A DNA stretch of 5,409 bases from Gordonia sp. (in: high G+C Gram-positive bacteria) (GTDB lineage: Bacteria > Actinomycetota > Actinomycetes > Mycobacteriales > Mycobacteriaceae). The stretch lies in the NCBI GenBank assembly GCA_030152405.1, contig JASLJL010000334.1, forward strand, positions 1-5,409, written 5' to 3'. The stretch's first letter is position 1, and every line of letters begins with the position of its first letter. Of the stretch, positions 1,087 through 4,254 are shown one piece after another. The notes beneath the pieces were generated by a model, which did not search any database, was not told where the DNA came from, and was given only the letters and a program-made list of their open reading frames with translations. The position numbers and the translations under genes were made by a program.

Positions 1087-1179
1087 TTCATCACGAGCGG
1101 CTGAGAGACTGGCTCTTTGACGCCGCAGCAACCGGTGGGGTTCACCCCTACTAGGTGCTAATGCCAGAGACGATGAACC
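1087..1179 (+). ncRNA. SAM riboswitch aptamer (SAM-I-type core, probably SAM-I/IV or SAM-IV variant)
   Basis: The conserved SAM-clan core is present in order. P1 is TTCATC (1087-1092) with GATGAA (1172-1177). P2 is CGGC (1098-1101) with GCCG (1122-1125), carrying the kink-turn-like TGAGAG and TTTGA elements and a loop with GACTGGC (1107-1113). The invariant GCAACC (1128-1133) pairs with GGTGC (1154-1158) to form P3, capped by GGGG/CCCC (1137-1140/1145-1148). It is followed by the S-box junction CTAAT. Loop CTGGC (1109-1113) is complementary to GCCAG (1163-1167), the expected pseudoknot. Only four bases (AGAC) lie between GCCAG and the P1 3' strand, so the P4 hairpin of classical SAM-I is absent. 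That is a feature of the related SAM-IV and SAM-I/IV classes. GGTTCA (1139-1144) in P3 also matches TGAACC (1174-1179), a candidate second pseudoknot. SAM riboswitches normally switch methionine and sulfur genes off when SAM is abundant. It lies 155 bases upstream of the oxygenase start, same strand. Confidence 0.92.
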
Positions 1180-1320
1180 ATCTCGACGTCCCCGCACGCG
1201 GGGTCTCGAGCCTGTACGGCCGTCACCTGTTCCGGTGCAGCCGCTCGTGATCGTTGCATGTGCCGTCCGCATGACACCGCGGACGACGACACACGATTCG
1301 AGTCCGGCTGTTGCCGGACA
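1180..1320 (+). promoter_or_regulatory. Structured leader between aptamer and first gene, putative expression platform
   Basis: This stretch holds four hairpins. The first is 1182-1210 (CTCGA/TCGAG around CCCCG/CGGGG). The second is 1224-1237 (CACC/GGTG, loop TGTTCC). The third is 1264-1285 (CGTCCGC/GCGGACG, loop of 8). The fourth is 1302-1319 (GTCCGGC/GCCGGAC, loop TGTT), ending one base before the Shine-Dalgarno sequence. None is followed by a U-tract, so translational control or Rho-dependent termination is more likely than an intrinsic terminator. CCTGTTCC (1226-1233) can pair with the ribosome binding site at 1322-1329 with one mismatch and one wobble. A 29-codon open frame (1161-1250) also runs through this leader. 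The pairings are read from sequence without folding-energy calculation. Confidence 0.4.
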
Positions 1321-1329
1321 GGGGAGAGG
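1321..1329 (+). promoter_or_regulatory. Ribosome binding site of the oxygenase gene
   Basis: The purine run GGGGAGAGG ends five bases before ATG 1335. It fixes that ATG as the start, in preference to the in-frame TTG at 1311. It is also the likely target of riboswitch control. Confidence 0.7.
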
Positions 1330-2159: not shown

Positions 2160-2845
2160 TGACACTCGCCGTCACCGCCCCGGTCGGCTCGGCGTCGCAC
2201 AAGGCGGCGTTCGACCTCAAGGGGGCGCACTACGAGTACGAAGGACGATCGACGATTCTCCTGGTCAGCGTGGGCGCCGACTATCACGAGGGGGAGAAGT
2301 TCGGCGCGACCGTCGACCTGCTGAACCGCAGTGGGTTCTCGCGGGTGACCGTCGCGGTCGCCGACACCCTGCAGCGTCACAACCTCGACGTTCCGCCGGG
2401 CGAGGCTTACCGGCTCTCGCGCCGTCGGGGCGACCAGTGGATTGCTCGCAACCGCCCCCTCCTCGATCTGCTGACCGCGGACGTCGACATCCTCCGGTGG
2501 GACACGGCACTCAGCGATCCCGCCTATCCGCACGCCCTCGACGACGTGCGGACCGCGTATGAGACGAACGCCGACTACGCGGCCGCGATCGACTCGACGA
2601 TCGACCGCTTCGTCTCACGCCGCGGCGACGACGTCCCCGACGTGGACCGCATCCGCAACGGCTGCCGGACGTATCTCCTCGAGGAGGTGCCGATCATCCA
2701 ACCGTTGTGGGCCGATCAGGGATACGACTTCGTGGTGTACCCGCAGCAGATCTCGACCGCCATGCAGGCGACGCGCGACCTGTTCGTCGGTGAGGGCGCC
2801 GCGTGGCTGCCGCTCCGTTTCAAGAAGCGGAAGTCGGCTCGATGA
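2159..2845 (+). CDS. tRNA-dependent cyclodipeptide synthase (CDPS), XYP subfamily
   Basis: CDPSs take two aminoacyl-tRNAs and make a cyclodipeptide (2,5-diketopiperazine) by ping-pong catalysis on a Rossmann-like fold related to class Ic aminoacyl-tRNA synthetases. The first strand ILLVSVGADY (33-42) places S37 as the serine that forms the aminoacyl-enzyme, matching S37 of AlbC. VADTLQRHNL (67-76) and GDQWIARN (91-98) are typical family segments. YLLEEVP (172-178) supplies Y172 and E176, equivalent to AlbC Y178 and E182. FVVYP (191-195) supplies the conserved Tyr followed by Pro. Residue 40 is Ala rather than Asn, so the signature is X-Y-P, not N-Y-H. The tail (221-228, FKKRKSAR) is basic and may contact tRNA. 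Length (228) is normal. ATG 2159 overlaps the preceding stop; in-frame GTG 2150 would add three residues. A GGAG lies only three bases before the ATG, so translation is probably coupled. The two amino acids used cannot be predicted by eye. Confidence 0.93.
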   Translation: MTLAVTAPVGSASHKAAFDLKGAHYEYEGRSTILLVSVGADYHEGEKFGATVDLLNRSGFSRVTVAVADTLQRHNLDVPPGEAYRLSRRRGDQWIARNRPLLDLLTADVDILRWDTALSDPAYPHALDDVRTAYETNADYAAAIDSTIDRFVSRRGDDVPDVDRIRNGCRTYLLEEVPIIQPLWADQGYDFVVYPQQISTAMQATRDLFVGEGAAWLPLRFKKRKSAR

Positions 2846-4254
2846 GCATCGTCGAGACCGAGGTGACCGCGGGAAGACGGACCGCGGGCTTCGTCGGACT
2901 GGCGACGGCGTCGTTCCTCGGCTGTATCGATCTGACGATCGTGTCGACGGCGCTGCCCGCCATCACCCGTGAGCTCGGAACGTCGATCTCGGTGTCCCAA
3001 CTCGTGCTCAGCGGGTTCCTGACGGCTCTCGCGATGTTCATGGTGACCGCGGGCCGGATCGGGGACCAGCTGGGACGACGAACCGTGCTGGTGGCGGGGC
3101 TCGGCGTGTTCGTCGTCGCATCGGTCGGCGCGGCTCTGGCGCCGGGGATCGGTTGGCTGATCGCGGCGAGGTTCGTGCAGGGCGCGTCGTGCGCGGTGCT
3201 CTACACGGGCACGTCCACGCTGGTGGAACAACTGTTCCCGGAGGGAGAGCGTGGACGCGCGGTCGGTTGGCTGTACGCCGTCAACGGTGTCGGACTGGCG
3301 ATCGGCCCGGTCCTCGGCGGACTCCTGGTCCCCGCGTTCGGGTGGGCGTCGGTCTTCTGGATCAACGTCCCGTTCGGGCTGGTGGCCGTCGGTCTGATCC
3401 TGGCCGCGGTCCCGTCGCCCGCGCCGGAGTCGGATCGGGGGACCGACGTTCCCGGTCAGGTGGCGCTCGCCGTCGCGGTGGCCGCCGCCGTCGCATTCGT
3501 CTCGCTGCCGGCGAGCGCGGGGTGGGCGAGCGTGCCGGTGATCGCGTCGGGAGTCGTCGCCGTGGCGGCCGTGGTGCTGCTCGTCGCGGCCGAACGACGG
3601 TCGCCCGACCCGCTCCTGCGCGTCGACCTGCTCGCGCACCCTCGACTCCGGGCGGCGTTGCTCTCGGACTTCTTCCTGGCGGCGTTCTACGCGTCGGCCC
3701 TTCTCGTGCTGCCGCAGTATCTCGCTGACCGGCACGGACTCGGTGAACGCCTGATCGGAGTCTCGCTGCTTCTAGTCAGCGGCACGATGGCGTTCGCCTC
3801 GCCACGTGTGGGCCGCTGGGTCGATCACGGCGGTCCCACCCGCCCGCTGCGATTCGGGTTCGCTTCACTCGCGGTGTCAGCGGGGGCACTTCTGGCGGGT
3901 GCGCTCTCCGGACAGATCGCCGTCCTGCTCGTCGGGTTCGTGTTCTTCGGACTCGGATGGGCGCTGATCCTGGCGCCTGCGACCCTGTCGGCGCTGTCGG
4001 CGGTTCCCACCGGTGAGGCGGGCTTCGCAATCGGCGCCTCCTGGACGTTCCACAACCTCGGCGGCGCTCTCGGTGCCGCCGTCGCCGCAGCGCTCTACGC
4101 GTCGTCCGACGCCGACGGCGGCTTGACGTCGACCGCGGTGTTCCTGCTCGTCGGCGCAGTCATCGCGCTCGCGGCGAACGCTTTGATCCCTGATTCGCAT
4201 TCCACCGTCCACGCCGCAGGCGTCGACGGTCCCAGAGAAGAGACTTCCCGATGA
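2842..4254 (+). CDS. MFS drug/metabolite exporter, DHA2 family (14 TM)
   Basis: This 470-residue integral membrane protein is probably a proton-driven exporter of the EmrB/QacA (DHA2) type. Motif D1-like CIDLTIVSTALP lies in TM1 (28-39). Motif A, GRIGDQLGRR (71-80), is in the TM2-3 loop. The antiporter motif C, GVGLAIGPVLGG (149-160), is in TM5. FWINVPFG (172-179) at TM6 is characteristic of DHA2 members. About fourteen hydrophobic segments can be counted, with TM13 around 395-420 and TM14 around 430-449; the last ~20 residues are a polar tail. The start overlaps the CDPS stop (ATGA, 2842-2845), with GGAAG at 2829-2833 as a possible ribosome binding site. Position next to a CDPS suggests it exports the finished diketopiperazine, as MFS genes beside other CDPS clusters are thought to do (bicyclomycin, pulcherriminic acid). 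It may also give self-protection. Family is certain; substrate is inferred. Confidence 0.95.
   Translation: MSIVETEVTAGRRTAGFVGLATASFLGCIDLTIVSTALPAITRELGTSISVSQLVLSGFLTALAMFMVTAGRIGDQLGRRTVLVAGLGVFVVASVGAALAPGIGWLIAARFVQGASCAVLYTGTSTLVEQLFPEGERGRAVGWLYAVNGVGLAIGPVLGGLLVPAFGWASVFWINVPFGLVAVGLILAAVPSPAPESDRGTDVPGQVALAVAVAAAVAFVSLPASAGWASVPVIASGVVAVAAVVLLVAAERRSPDPLLRVDLLAHPRLRAALLSDFFLAAFYASALLVLPQYLADRHGLGERLIGVSLLLVSGTMAFASPRVGRWVDHGGPTRPLRFGFASLAVSAGALLAGALSGQIAVLLVGFVFFGLGWALILAPATLSALSAVPTGEAGFAIGASWTFHNLGGALGAAVAAALYASSDADGGLTSTAVFLLVGAVIALAANALIPDSHSTVHAAGVDGPREETSR

What the first reader, a model, noticed from the sequence alone, without database searches (positions are those of the whole stretch)
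1087..4254. A SAM riboswitch controls a cyclodipeptide biosynthesis and export operon
A clear SAM-clan aptamer sits directly upstream of an oxygenase-CDPS-exporter-lipoprotein operon on the same strand. SAM riboswitches are known for methionine, cysteine and SAM metabolism and transport; I know of no described CDPS pathway under one. The usual SAM-off logic predicts that the diketopiperazine is made when methionine/SAM is scarce. The product would then be a scavenging molecule (for sulfur, methionine, or a metal needed for methionine synthesis) or a starvation signal. This is the best candidate for an undescribed system here.
Basis: partly seen in the sequence, partly recalled or inferred. Interest (0 to 1): 0.88.

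Follow-up and report, generated by a model that had tools for sequence, protein, structure and literature searches.

The report
SAM-switched cyclic-dipeptide sulfur-foraging operon
In Gordonia and related soil bacteria, an RNA motif that matches the SAM riboswitch sits directly in front of genes predicted to make, export and likely take back a small cyclic dipeptide, which would be switched on when methionine runs short and is predicted to help the cell forage for sulfur.

Summary
Window 1085-1179 is a clear SAM-I aptamer (65.7 bits, cut-off 44.4) before a tight operon: Fe(II)/2OG oxygenase, CDPS of the cyclo(Ala-Glu) type, MFS exporter, binding lipoprotein; in relatives two permeases and a fused ATPase follow. 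Among 22 Mycobacteriales genomes with this CDPS clade, 18 carry a SAM aptamer just before the oxygenase: SAM-I in 7, SAM-IV in 11, each class on its own CDPS clade. None of 26 other CDPS loci of the order has one. The other SAM aptamers of G. malaquae and N. brasiliensis lead MetY, MetZ, cystine-type transporters and SufS-like enzymes. The importer's sister proteins sit behind SAM-I aptamers with luciferase-like monooxygenases, a superfamily used in organosulfur scavenging; in G. effusa and N. carnea such a monooxygenase lies inside the CDPS operon itself. In Pseudomonas the homologous cassette sits with a sulfonate-type binding protein and an NtaA/DmoA-family monooxygenase. Best reading: a methionine/sulfur-shortage operon whose modified cyclic dipeptide is exported and retrieved for sulfur foraging. 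SAM binding, direction of control, product and cargo are untested. I found no paper linking a CDPS with a SAM riboswitch.

The parts
1085..1179 (+). SAM-I (S-box) riboswitch aptamer, RF00162
   Evidence: 65.7 bits, gathering 44.4, E 4e-14; aligned with five relatives
1090..1103 (+). aptamer 5' segment (P1/P2 side) that can pair with 1238-1251
   Evidence: 14 Watson-Crick pairs; 1 of 200 dinucleotide shuffles as good
1238..1251 (+). putative anti-aptamer segment in the leader
   Evidence: pair probability about 0.7 for most of the 14 pairs in the free ensemble; the same 14 pairs in the two nearest Gordonia, 11 in G. liuliyuniae, 9 in G. effusa (not better than shuffles); not found in the other three SAM-I relatives
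1320..1329 (+). Shine-Dalgarno-like AGGGGAGAGG before ATG 1335
   Evidence: read from the sequence
1335..2159 (+). Fe(II)/2-oxoglutarate oxygenase, hydroxylase-type H159-x-D161...H244, R254
   Evidence: PF13640 and PF22814; residues across 59 sequences
2159..2845 (+). cyclodipeptide synthase, XYP subfamily, predicted cyclo(L-Ala-L-Glu) type
   Evidence: 5MLQ/9I5M, 272 bits; catalytic and specificity residues
2842..4254 (+). MFS (DHA2-like) exporter
4251..5409 (+). family-5 solute-binding lipoprotein of a peptide/nickel-type ABC importer, incomplete at the window edge; permeases and ATPase lie beyond it in relatives

Best explanation
This is an operon behind a SAM-I riboswitch aptamer that likely switches on when SAM and methionine are low, encoding a predicted cyclo(Ala-Glu)-type synthase with its oxygenase, a predicted exporter and a predicted importer, and it is predicted to make, release and take back a modified cyclic dipeptide that forages for sulfur. 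Shown by calls: the aptamer, the gene order, its recurrence with two aptamer classes, the methionine/sulfur character of the other SAM-riboswitch genes examined in two genomes, the kinship of the importer to importers that sit with luciferase-like monooxygenases behind SAM-I aptamers, and such a monooxygenase inside the CDPS operon of two relatives. Inferred: SAM-OFF control; cyclo(L-Ala-L-Glu) as the first product (from active-site residues shared with the characterised N. brasiliensis enzyme); hydroxylation or desaturation by the oxygenase; export by the MFS; re-import of the product, or of a sulfur-bearing adduct, by the ABC importer; sulfur as the cargo.
For: Aptamer. Recurrence: 18 of 22 genomes (SAM-I 7, SAM-IV 11); SAM-I and SAM-IV fall on two separate CDPS clades. 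Control: 0 of 26 other CDPS loci; the 14 clade loci put through the same tool, all known positives, gave 14 of 14. In Gordonia all 5 CDPS genomes and 3 of the 54 others have an RF00162 match. Other SAM riboswitches: G. malaquae 3 of 3 (SufS-like, MetY, cystine-type ABC); N. brasiliensis 4 of 4 (SufS-like, MetY, MetZ, cystine-type ABC) (MetY and MetZ over curated cut-offs, the others by best family under cut-off). Importer relatives: behind SAM-I with three luciferase-like monooxygenases in CDPS-less Gordonia G431 and G432; same strand, 4-5 kb behind the SAM-I match in 10 of 11 SAM-IV-clade Nocardia genomes, operon content read in two of them; sister clades in the tree. Monooxygenase inside the CDPS operon between MFS and binding protein: G. 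effusa and N. carnea (TIGR03558 266.8 and 275.7, cut-off 167), and the same gene reading in two frames in G. liuliyuniae. Pseudomonas cassette: SsuA-family binding protein over cut-off in the 2 tested and NtaA/DmoA monooxygenase. Residues; product of the N. brasiliensis enzyme: PMC13062777 (passages; section 25).
Against: Four of 22 genomes have no same-strand aptamer. No SAM aptamer in 15 Streptomyces, Actinomadura, Pseudomonas, Photorhabdus, Xenorhabdus and Paraburkholderia loci. In the SAM-IV Nocardia clade the importer is not in the CDPS operon, and G418 has neither the operon importer nor a close homologue. The window, G. malaquae, G445, N. vermiculata and M. neoaurum have no monooxygenase in the CDPS operon. 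The importer also resembles nickel and staphylopine importers. The Actinomadura importers beside the cassette lie outside the two sister clades. Two Pseudomonas enzymes of the monooxygenase type have Ala at the residue that predicts cyclo(Leu-Glu), so their product may differ. Leader folds do not settle ON or OFF. RF00162 is common in the order (314 of 397).
Confidence: 0.55

Rival explanations
1. The importer takes up an ordinary organosulfur nutrient, while the cyclic dipeptide is exported as an antibiotic, antimetabolite or signal made under methionine shortage; the two halves share only the trigger.
For: In the 12 Streptomyces loci no importer family recurs beside the three-gene cassette (my own gene caller). 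In the SAM-IV Nocardia clade and G418 cassette and close importer are apart or the importer is missing. The importer relatives occur without a CDPS in G431 and G432.
Against: In 7 genomes (G001, G002, G003, G005, G009, G010, G445) cassette and importer lie on one strand in one stretch, directly or with one monooxygenase gene between. Actinomadura loci again pair the cassette with a family-5 importer, though a distant one, and Pseudomonas pairs it with a TonB receptor and binding protein.
Confidence: 0.22
2. The product is a metallophore for a metal needed in methionine synthesis (zinc for MetE, cobalt for B12), made and retrieved like staphylopine.
For: Importer subunits score with nickel and staphylopine families (the fused ATPase passes the NikE cut-off, 351 vs 333), and the make-export-import layout matches the Cnt system (recalled).
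Against: The binding protein's best family is TIGR04028, with nickel and CntA far below cut-off. Related importers sit with luciferase-like monooxygenases behind SAM-I, and two CDPS operons contain one. A SAM aptamer rather than a known metal sensor leads the operon. A single oxygenase on cyclo(Ala-Glu) would make a poor chelator (inference).
Confidence: 0.1
3. The riboswitch is real but the CDPS product has no nutritional role: a general starvation signal, or residual regulation inherited with a borrowed leader.
For: Four clade members lack the aptamer, and 15 cassettes elsewhere lack it.
Against: Two different aptamer classes serve the same operon type, and the linked genes have sulfur-type functions.
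Confidence: 0.1

Closest known systems
Nocardia brasiliensis CDPS (Nbra-CDPS, PDB 5MLQ, 9I5M)
   Same: 59% identical CDPS; same catalytic and tested specificity residues; its own locus has the oxygenase-CDPS-MFS order and a SAM-IV aptamer
   Different: SAM-IV instead of SAM-I; the ABC importer is not in its CDPS operon. The passages and section of PMC13062777 that I read treat the enzyme, not its gene context or regulation
2OG-dioxygenase/CDPS neighbourhoods in Burkholderia sp. 383 and Pseudomonas fluorescens (PMC2922099 of 2010, passages read)
   Same: same gene pairing
   Different: no riboswitch, importer or sulfur link in the passages read; 'riboswitch' occurs 0 times in its main text
SAM-I and SAM-IV riboswitch regulons of actinobacteria
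   Same: same RNA families; the same genomes use them for MetY, MetZ and cystine-type transport
   Different: target here is a natural-product operon
SAM-I-led importer and luciferase-like monooxygenase operon of the same genera (found here)
   Same: SAM-I aptamer, importer 47-52% identical, and in two CDPS operons one monooxygenase of the same family
   Different: no CDPS, oxygenase cassette or MFS matching ours in the stretches read
Staphylopine (Cnt) make-export-import loop (recalled)
   Same: biosynthesis, MFS exporter and family-5 importer together
   Different: CDPS plus oxygenase instead of the Cnt enzymes; SAM aptamer; binding protein closest to TIGR04028
Bicyclomycin clusters (PMC5930311, search listing and start of abstract only)
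   Same: CDPS with 2OG oxygenase chemistry
   Different: one oxygenase only; predicted cyclo(Ala-Glu), not cyclo(Ile-Leu); importer and SAM aptamer present

Membership tests
SAM-I riboswitch (RF00162) | covariance-model score over the gathering score, full-length aptamer | tested here: met
   65.7 vs 44.4, model 1-108
SAM-I riboswitch (RF00162) | binds SAM and changes expression | not testable with these tools
   needs in-line probing and RNA measurement
SAM-I riboswitch (RF00162) | expression platform with mutually exclusive structures | tested here: inconclusive
   14-bp anti-aptamer in the window and nearest kin, absent in some relatives; no consistent effect on the ribosome-binding site
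CDPS, XYP subfamily | catalytic Ser, Tyr, Glu, Tyr and the XYP proline | tested here: met
   S37, Y172, E176, Y194, P195
CDPS, cyclo(Ala-Glu) group | Leu at the key P1 residue (L32 in Nbra) and Nbra-like second-site Ser199 | tested here: met
   L35 and S199; rule from PMC5816076 and PMC13062777. The full P1/C2 motifs were not compared
CDPS, cyclo(Ala-Glu) group | makes cyclo(L-Ala-L-Glu) | not testable with these tools
   needs expression and mass spectrometry
Fe(II)/2OG oxygenase | HxD...H iron triad and 2OG arginine | tested here: met
   H159 and D161 in 59 of 59, H244 58 of 59, R254 57 of 59
WelO5-type halogenase | Gly in place of the acidic iron ligand (recalled) | tested here: not met
   D161 in 59 of 59; Pfam WelO5 33.8 bits, cut-off 27, is overall similarity
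Nickel importer (NikA) or staphylopine importer (CntA) | binding protein over the family cut-off | tested here: not met
   (L001): NikA 166.7 vs 393; CntA 119.7 vs 800
TIGR04028 binding proteins | score over cut-off 468.5 | tested here: not met
   289.6 (best family, under cut-off); the relative in the monooxygenase operon 328.8
Importer plus luciferase-like monooxygenase operon | luciferase-like monooxygenase in the operon | tested here: not met
   not met in the window (MFS ORF overlaps the binding-protein ORF); met in the CDPS operons of G. effusa and N. carnea

The most novel reading that the evidence does not exclude
A 'thiophore': the oxygenase turns cyclo(Ala-Glu) into a thiol-trapping cyclic dipeptide that the sulfur-starved cell secretes; it captures cysteine, sulfide or other thiols outside, and the dedicated importer brings the adduct home, where a luciferase-like monooxygenase frees the sulfur. 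This would be the sulfur counterpart of a siderophore, under direct SAM-riboswitch control.
Probability: 0.2. Interest if true: 0.95.

Novelty: new variant of a known kind. Interest (0 to 1): 0.82.

Why it matters
I found no described natural-product pathway under a SAM riboswitch in the held papers. This one appears with two different aptamer classes on the same operon type, so the RNA hints at what the orphan cyclic dipeptide is for: methionine or sulfur shortage. It gives the well-studied N. brasiliensis CDPS a likely physiological setting, predicts the growth condition in which to look for its final product, and, if the product carries sulfur home, would add a foraging-molecule class beside the one known for metals. 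Gordonia malaquae and G. effusa are nameable environmental hosts in which it can be tested directly.

Tried and rejected
Metallophore as first choice: dropped to a rival because nickel and CntA models fall far below cut-off and the related importers sit with monooxygenases. Halogenase: rejected on D161. Plasmid origin: no megablast match among plasmids; tblastn found only four sponge-symbiont plasmids at 32%. whalefall-1 RNA at 2669-2728 is below its gathering score and taken as chance. FecCD importer genes beside the N. brasiliensis cassette were not pursued: in three relatives another gene, an MFS, follows the cassette. Photorhabdus Dpp genes near its CDPS include a true DppA, so they were not counted as a dedicated importer. 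Leader folding to decide ON or OFF: inconclusive; my script took a wrong internal ATG for the window, corrected. A SAM-I aptamer as a rare mark: rejected for the order (314 of 397); in Gordonia it is rare (8 of 59, stricter filters). My own gene caller miscalls strands in places, so counts rest on tblastn. In the CDPS tree one of the 11 SAM-IV genomes (G484) was left out, and 12 of the 56 loci outside Mycobacteriales were included. 15 of those 56 were scanned with Rfam. In one search five further CDPS matches without a locus and one weak fragment locus (L161) were not scanned; the 26 loci scanned are L133-L157 and L162. In one search three weak binding-protein matches without a locus were not followed. 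The 14 clade loci were chosen as known positives; the four negatives went.

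Full report
Observation. The window holds a SAM-I (S-box) aptamer at 1085-1179 on the + strand, 65.7 bits against a gathering score of 44.4, E 4e-14, aligned over the full model. Downstream on the same strand lie an Fe(II)/2OG oxygenase (1335-2159), a cyclodipeptide synthase (2159-2845), a DHA2-like MFS transporter (2842-4254) and a family-5 solute-binding lipoprotein that runs off the window. The sequence shows overlaps of 1, 4 and 4 bases between successive ORFs, so they are likely one transcript. 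In G. malaquae (94-95% identical over the first three genes) the operon continues with two permeases and a fused ATPase; the unnamed Gordonia G445 has the same layout.

Recurrence. A search of one-genome-per-species contigs with a CDPS alignment gave 72 loci. The oxygenase-CDPS-MFS cassette is present in 58 of 72 by tblastn; 9 of 72 lack a matching MFS and 14 of 72 a matching oxygenase (5 of these 14 are Photorhabdus, which share another 2OG oxygenase; families read in one). Whole-genome searches in the order (397 genomes), in Gordonia (59) and in Nocardia (150) bring the Mycobacteriales set to 22 genomes. A SAM aptamer lies on the same strand, about 1 kb before the CDPS and so just before the oxygenase, in 18 of 22: SAM-I in 7 (G001, G002, G003, G005, G010, G418, G445) and SAM-IV in 11 (G006, G007, G463, G483, G484, G485, G493, G515, G529, G573, G586). 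The four without are N. panacis (its oxygenase match is short, 165 of 274 residues), the unnamed G575, a Williamsia MAG and N. vermiculata, whose SAM-IV serves the divergent gene; a permissive scan found no SAM aptamer otherwise. In a CDPS tree, SAM-I rows and SAM-IV rows sit in two different clades within one well-supported Mycobacteriales clade (21 of 22 genomes plus the window). Two aptamer classes on one operon type is hard to get by chance.

Controls. Other CDPS genes of the order (26 loci, about 1.5 kb on each side) have no SAM aptamer, 0 of 26; the 14 clade loci given, picked as known positives, gave 14 of 14. In Gordonia, 8 of 59 genomes have an RF00162 match: all 5 CDPS genomes and 3 others. 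Across the order RF00162 is common (314 of 397), so the aptamer as such is not special; its place is. The cassette in 8 Streptomyces and Actinomadura loci and in 7 proteobacterial loci has no SAM aptamer (15 of the 56 loci outside Mycobacteriales), so as far as scanned SAM control belongs to the Mycobacteriales branch.

The regulon. The three SAM-IV aptamers of G. malaquae lead a SufS-like enzyme, MetY (807 bits, cut-off 703) and a cystine-type ABC permease. In N. brasiliensis the remaining SAM-family matches lead a SufS-like enzyme, MetY (838 vs 703), MetZ (788 vs 618) and a cystine-type ABC system. The SufS-like and cystine-type names are best families below their curated cut-offs. In N. carnea and N. 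vermiculata the SufS-like gene with its SAM-IV aptamer lies divergently next to the CDPS operon. The CDPS operon is thus one member of a small set that is otherwise about methionine and sulfur amino acids, in the two genomes examined.

The importer. The binding protein's best family is TIGR04028 (289.6 bits, cut-off 468.5); nickel and staphylopine families score lower and far under their cut-offs, though the fused ATPase passes the NikE cut-off. Two of the three CDPS-less Gordonia genomes with RF00162 carry, behind that aptamer, a luciferase-like monooxygenase (MsnO8 family, 302 vs 167), a homologous importer (about 50% identity in binding protein and permeases, 47% in ATPase) and two further monooxygenases of the NtaA/DmoA kind (one over the family cut-off at 414, the other under it at 247, cut-off 280); the third, G427, keeps monooxygenases and only remnants of the binding protein. 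All 11 SAM-IV-clade Nocardia genomes have the same importer type at 66-69% to the one of G431; in 10 of 11 it lies 4-5 kb behind the genome's SAM-I match on the same strand, the eleventh being on another contig. Read in N. brasiliensis and G485, that operon holds a cystine-type ABC system, the importer and monooxygenases: three by tblastn and in N. brasiliensis a fourth of the same superfamily, under its cut-offs. In a tree the 7 CDPS-operon binding proteins form one clade (100/100), sister to a clade (94/98) of the 6 monooxygenase-operon rows and 3 rows whose surroundings I did not read; the Actinomadura binding proteins fall outside both.

Monooxygenase in the CDPS operon. On checking, the 1.1-kb space between MFS and binding protein in G. 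effusa and N. carnea proved to hold an intact MsnO8-family luciferase-like monooxygenase (266.8 and 275.7 bits, cut-off 167), whose start in G. effusa overlaps the MFS stop. In G. liuliyuniae the same gene reads in two frames in the stored assembly. The Williamsia locus has a relative (299.5 bits) on the opposite strand near its CDPS. The window, G. malaquae, G445, N. vermiculata and M. neoaurum have none there. So the same enzyme superfamily meets this importer with and without the CDPS. That superfamily members cleave organosulfur compounds is established for DszA, DmoA and YtnJ relatives (functions recalled; names); what the MsnO8-type members here do is unknown.

Pseudomonas. There the cassette sits in a larger conserved cluster: M19 dipeptidase, amine oxidase, RidA-like protein, TonB receptor, SsuA-family binding protein, oxygenase, CDPS, MFS and an NtaA/DmoA-family monooxygenase (matching loci, self-matches included: 18, 19, 19, 23, 23 and 18 for dipeptidase, amine oxidase, RidA, receptor, binding protein and monooxygenase; a few of these are short, distant or on the other strand). 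The binding protein passes the SsuA cut-off in both tested (214.8 and 191.6 against 163.5), and the monooxygenase of the one tested scores 537.9 against 279.7. So CDPS with sulfonate-type and FMN-monooxygenase genes occurs in another phylum without the riboswitch. A caution: the two monooxygenase-type enzymes tested carry Ala at the residue that predicts cyclo(Leu-Glu).

Product. Nbra-CDPS makes cyclo(L-Ala-L-Glu) (PMC13062777: passages, section 25). The window enzyme keeps its catalytic residues and the two residues that mutation showed to steer specificity, L32 and S199 (window L35, S199). PMC5816076 (abstract and passages) gives Leu at the second P1 residue as the mark of cyclo(Ala-Glu). 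The oxygenase has an intact hydroxylase-type site. Which atom it oxidises is unknown.

Switch mechanism. Aptamer bases 1090-1103 are perfectly complementary to leader bases 1238-1251 (1 of 200 shuffles as good; 0 of 200 in each of the two nearest relatives; 3 of 200 with 11 pairs in G. liuliyuniae; 9 pairs in G. effusa, 52 of 200; in G418, N. carnea and M. neoaurum the best match is a different segment). In the window the free and aptamer-forced folds are nearly equal in energy (-131.0 and -130.9 kcal/mol), as a switch needs, but the effect on the ribosome-binding site is small and not consistent across relatives or fold lengths. SAM-OFF is the usual logic of the class (recalled), not shown here.

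Mechanism chosen. Low SAM likely releases the operon; the CDPS would use charged tRNAs to make cyclo(Ala-Glu), the oxygenase would modify it, the MFS export it and the ABC importer retrieve it or its sulfur adduct. Steps after transcription are inferred. The weakest link is whether importer and product belong together; the first rival keeps them apart.

Novelty. No held paper has both 'cyclodipeptide synthase' and 'SAM riboswitch'; eight have 'riboswitch' (listing), and in the one I opened the two mentions are a biosensor sentence and a reference. Two papers have 'SAM riboswitch' with 'biosynthetic gene cluster', seen as a listing only. (listings) added nothing; none of the 40 listed of 156 held 'cyclodipeptide synthase'. 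Subscription papers are mostly not in that library. The 2OG oxygenase-CDPS pairing was noted in 2010 (PMC2922099, passages).

Noticed in passing
L183 (G431), L184 (G432), L208 (G007), L210 (G485): A SAM-I-led operon with a TIGR04028-like importer and several luciferase-like monooxygenases, in Nocardia preceded by a cystine-type ABC system; looks like an organosulfur-scavenging operon of its own that I did not find named.
   Followed up: partly
L185 (G427), around 5211-5417: The same operon with only remnants of the importer binding protein left beside the monooxygenases.
   Followed up: no
L002 12066-13168: The monooxygenase gene inside the G. liuliyuniae CDPS operon reads in two frames; assembly error or decay not told apart.
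   Followed up: no
L039 1874-13653 and about 18-23 loci, nearly all Pseudomonas: Large conserved cluster around the cassette: M19 dipeptidase, amine oxidase, RidA-like protein, TonB receptor, SsuA-like binding protein, NtaA/DmoA-family monooxygenase; two CDPSs tested carry the residue predicting cyclo(Leu-Glu).
   Followed up: partly
L022, L025, L030, L036, L046 (Photorhabdus): CDPS and MFS kept, but the oxygenase is of a different family (PF03171/PF14226, read in L022, conserved in all five), and an OPT transporter gene follows in all five.
   Followed up: no
L045 10229-11419 and L019 14572-15729 (Actinomadura); L028 1168-2331 (Streptomyces): An amidohydrolase gene near the cassette (in Actinomadura among the importer genes), possibly opening the ring of an imported diketopiperazine.
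   Followed up: no
L003 7292-8614 (-), L015 7469-8779 (-), L125, L128: A SufS-like PLP enzyme behind a SAM-IV aptamer in four genomes; role unknown, possibly a C-S lyase.
   Followed up: partly
window 1-957: WD40-repeat protein, 5' end outside the window; not part of the operon.
   Followed up: no
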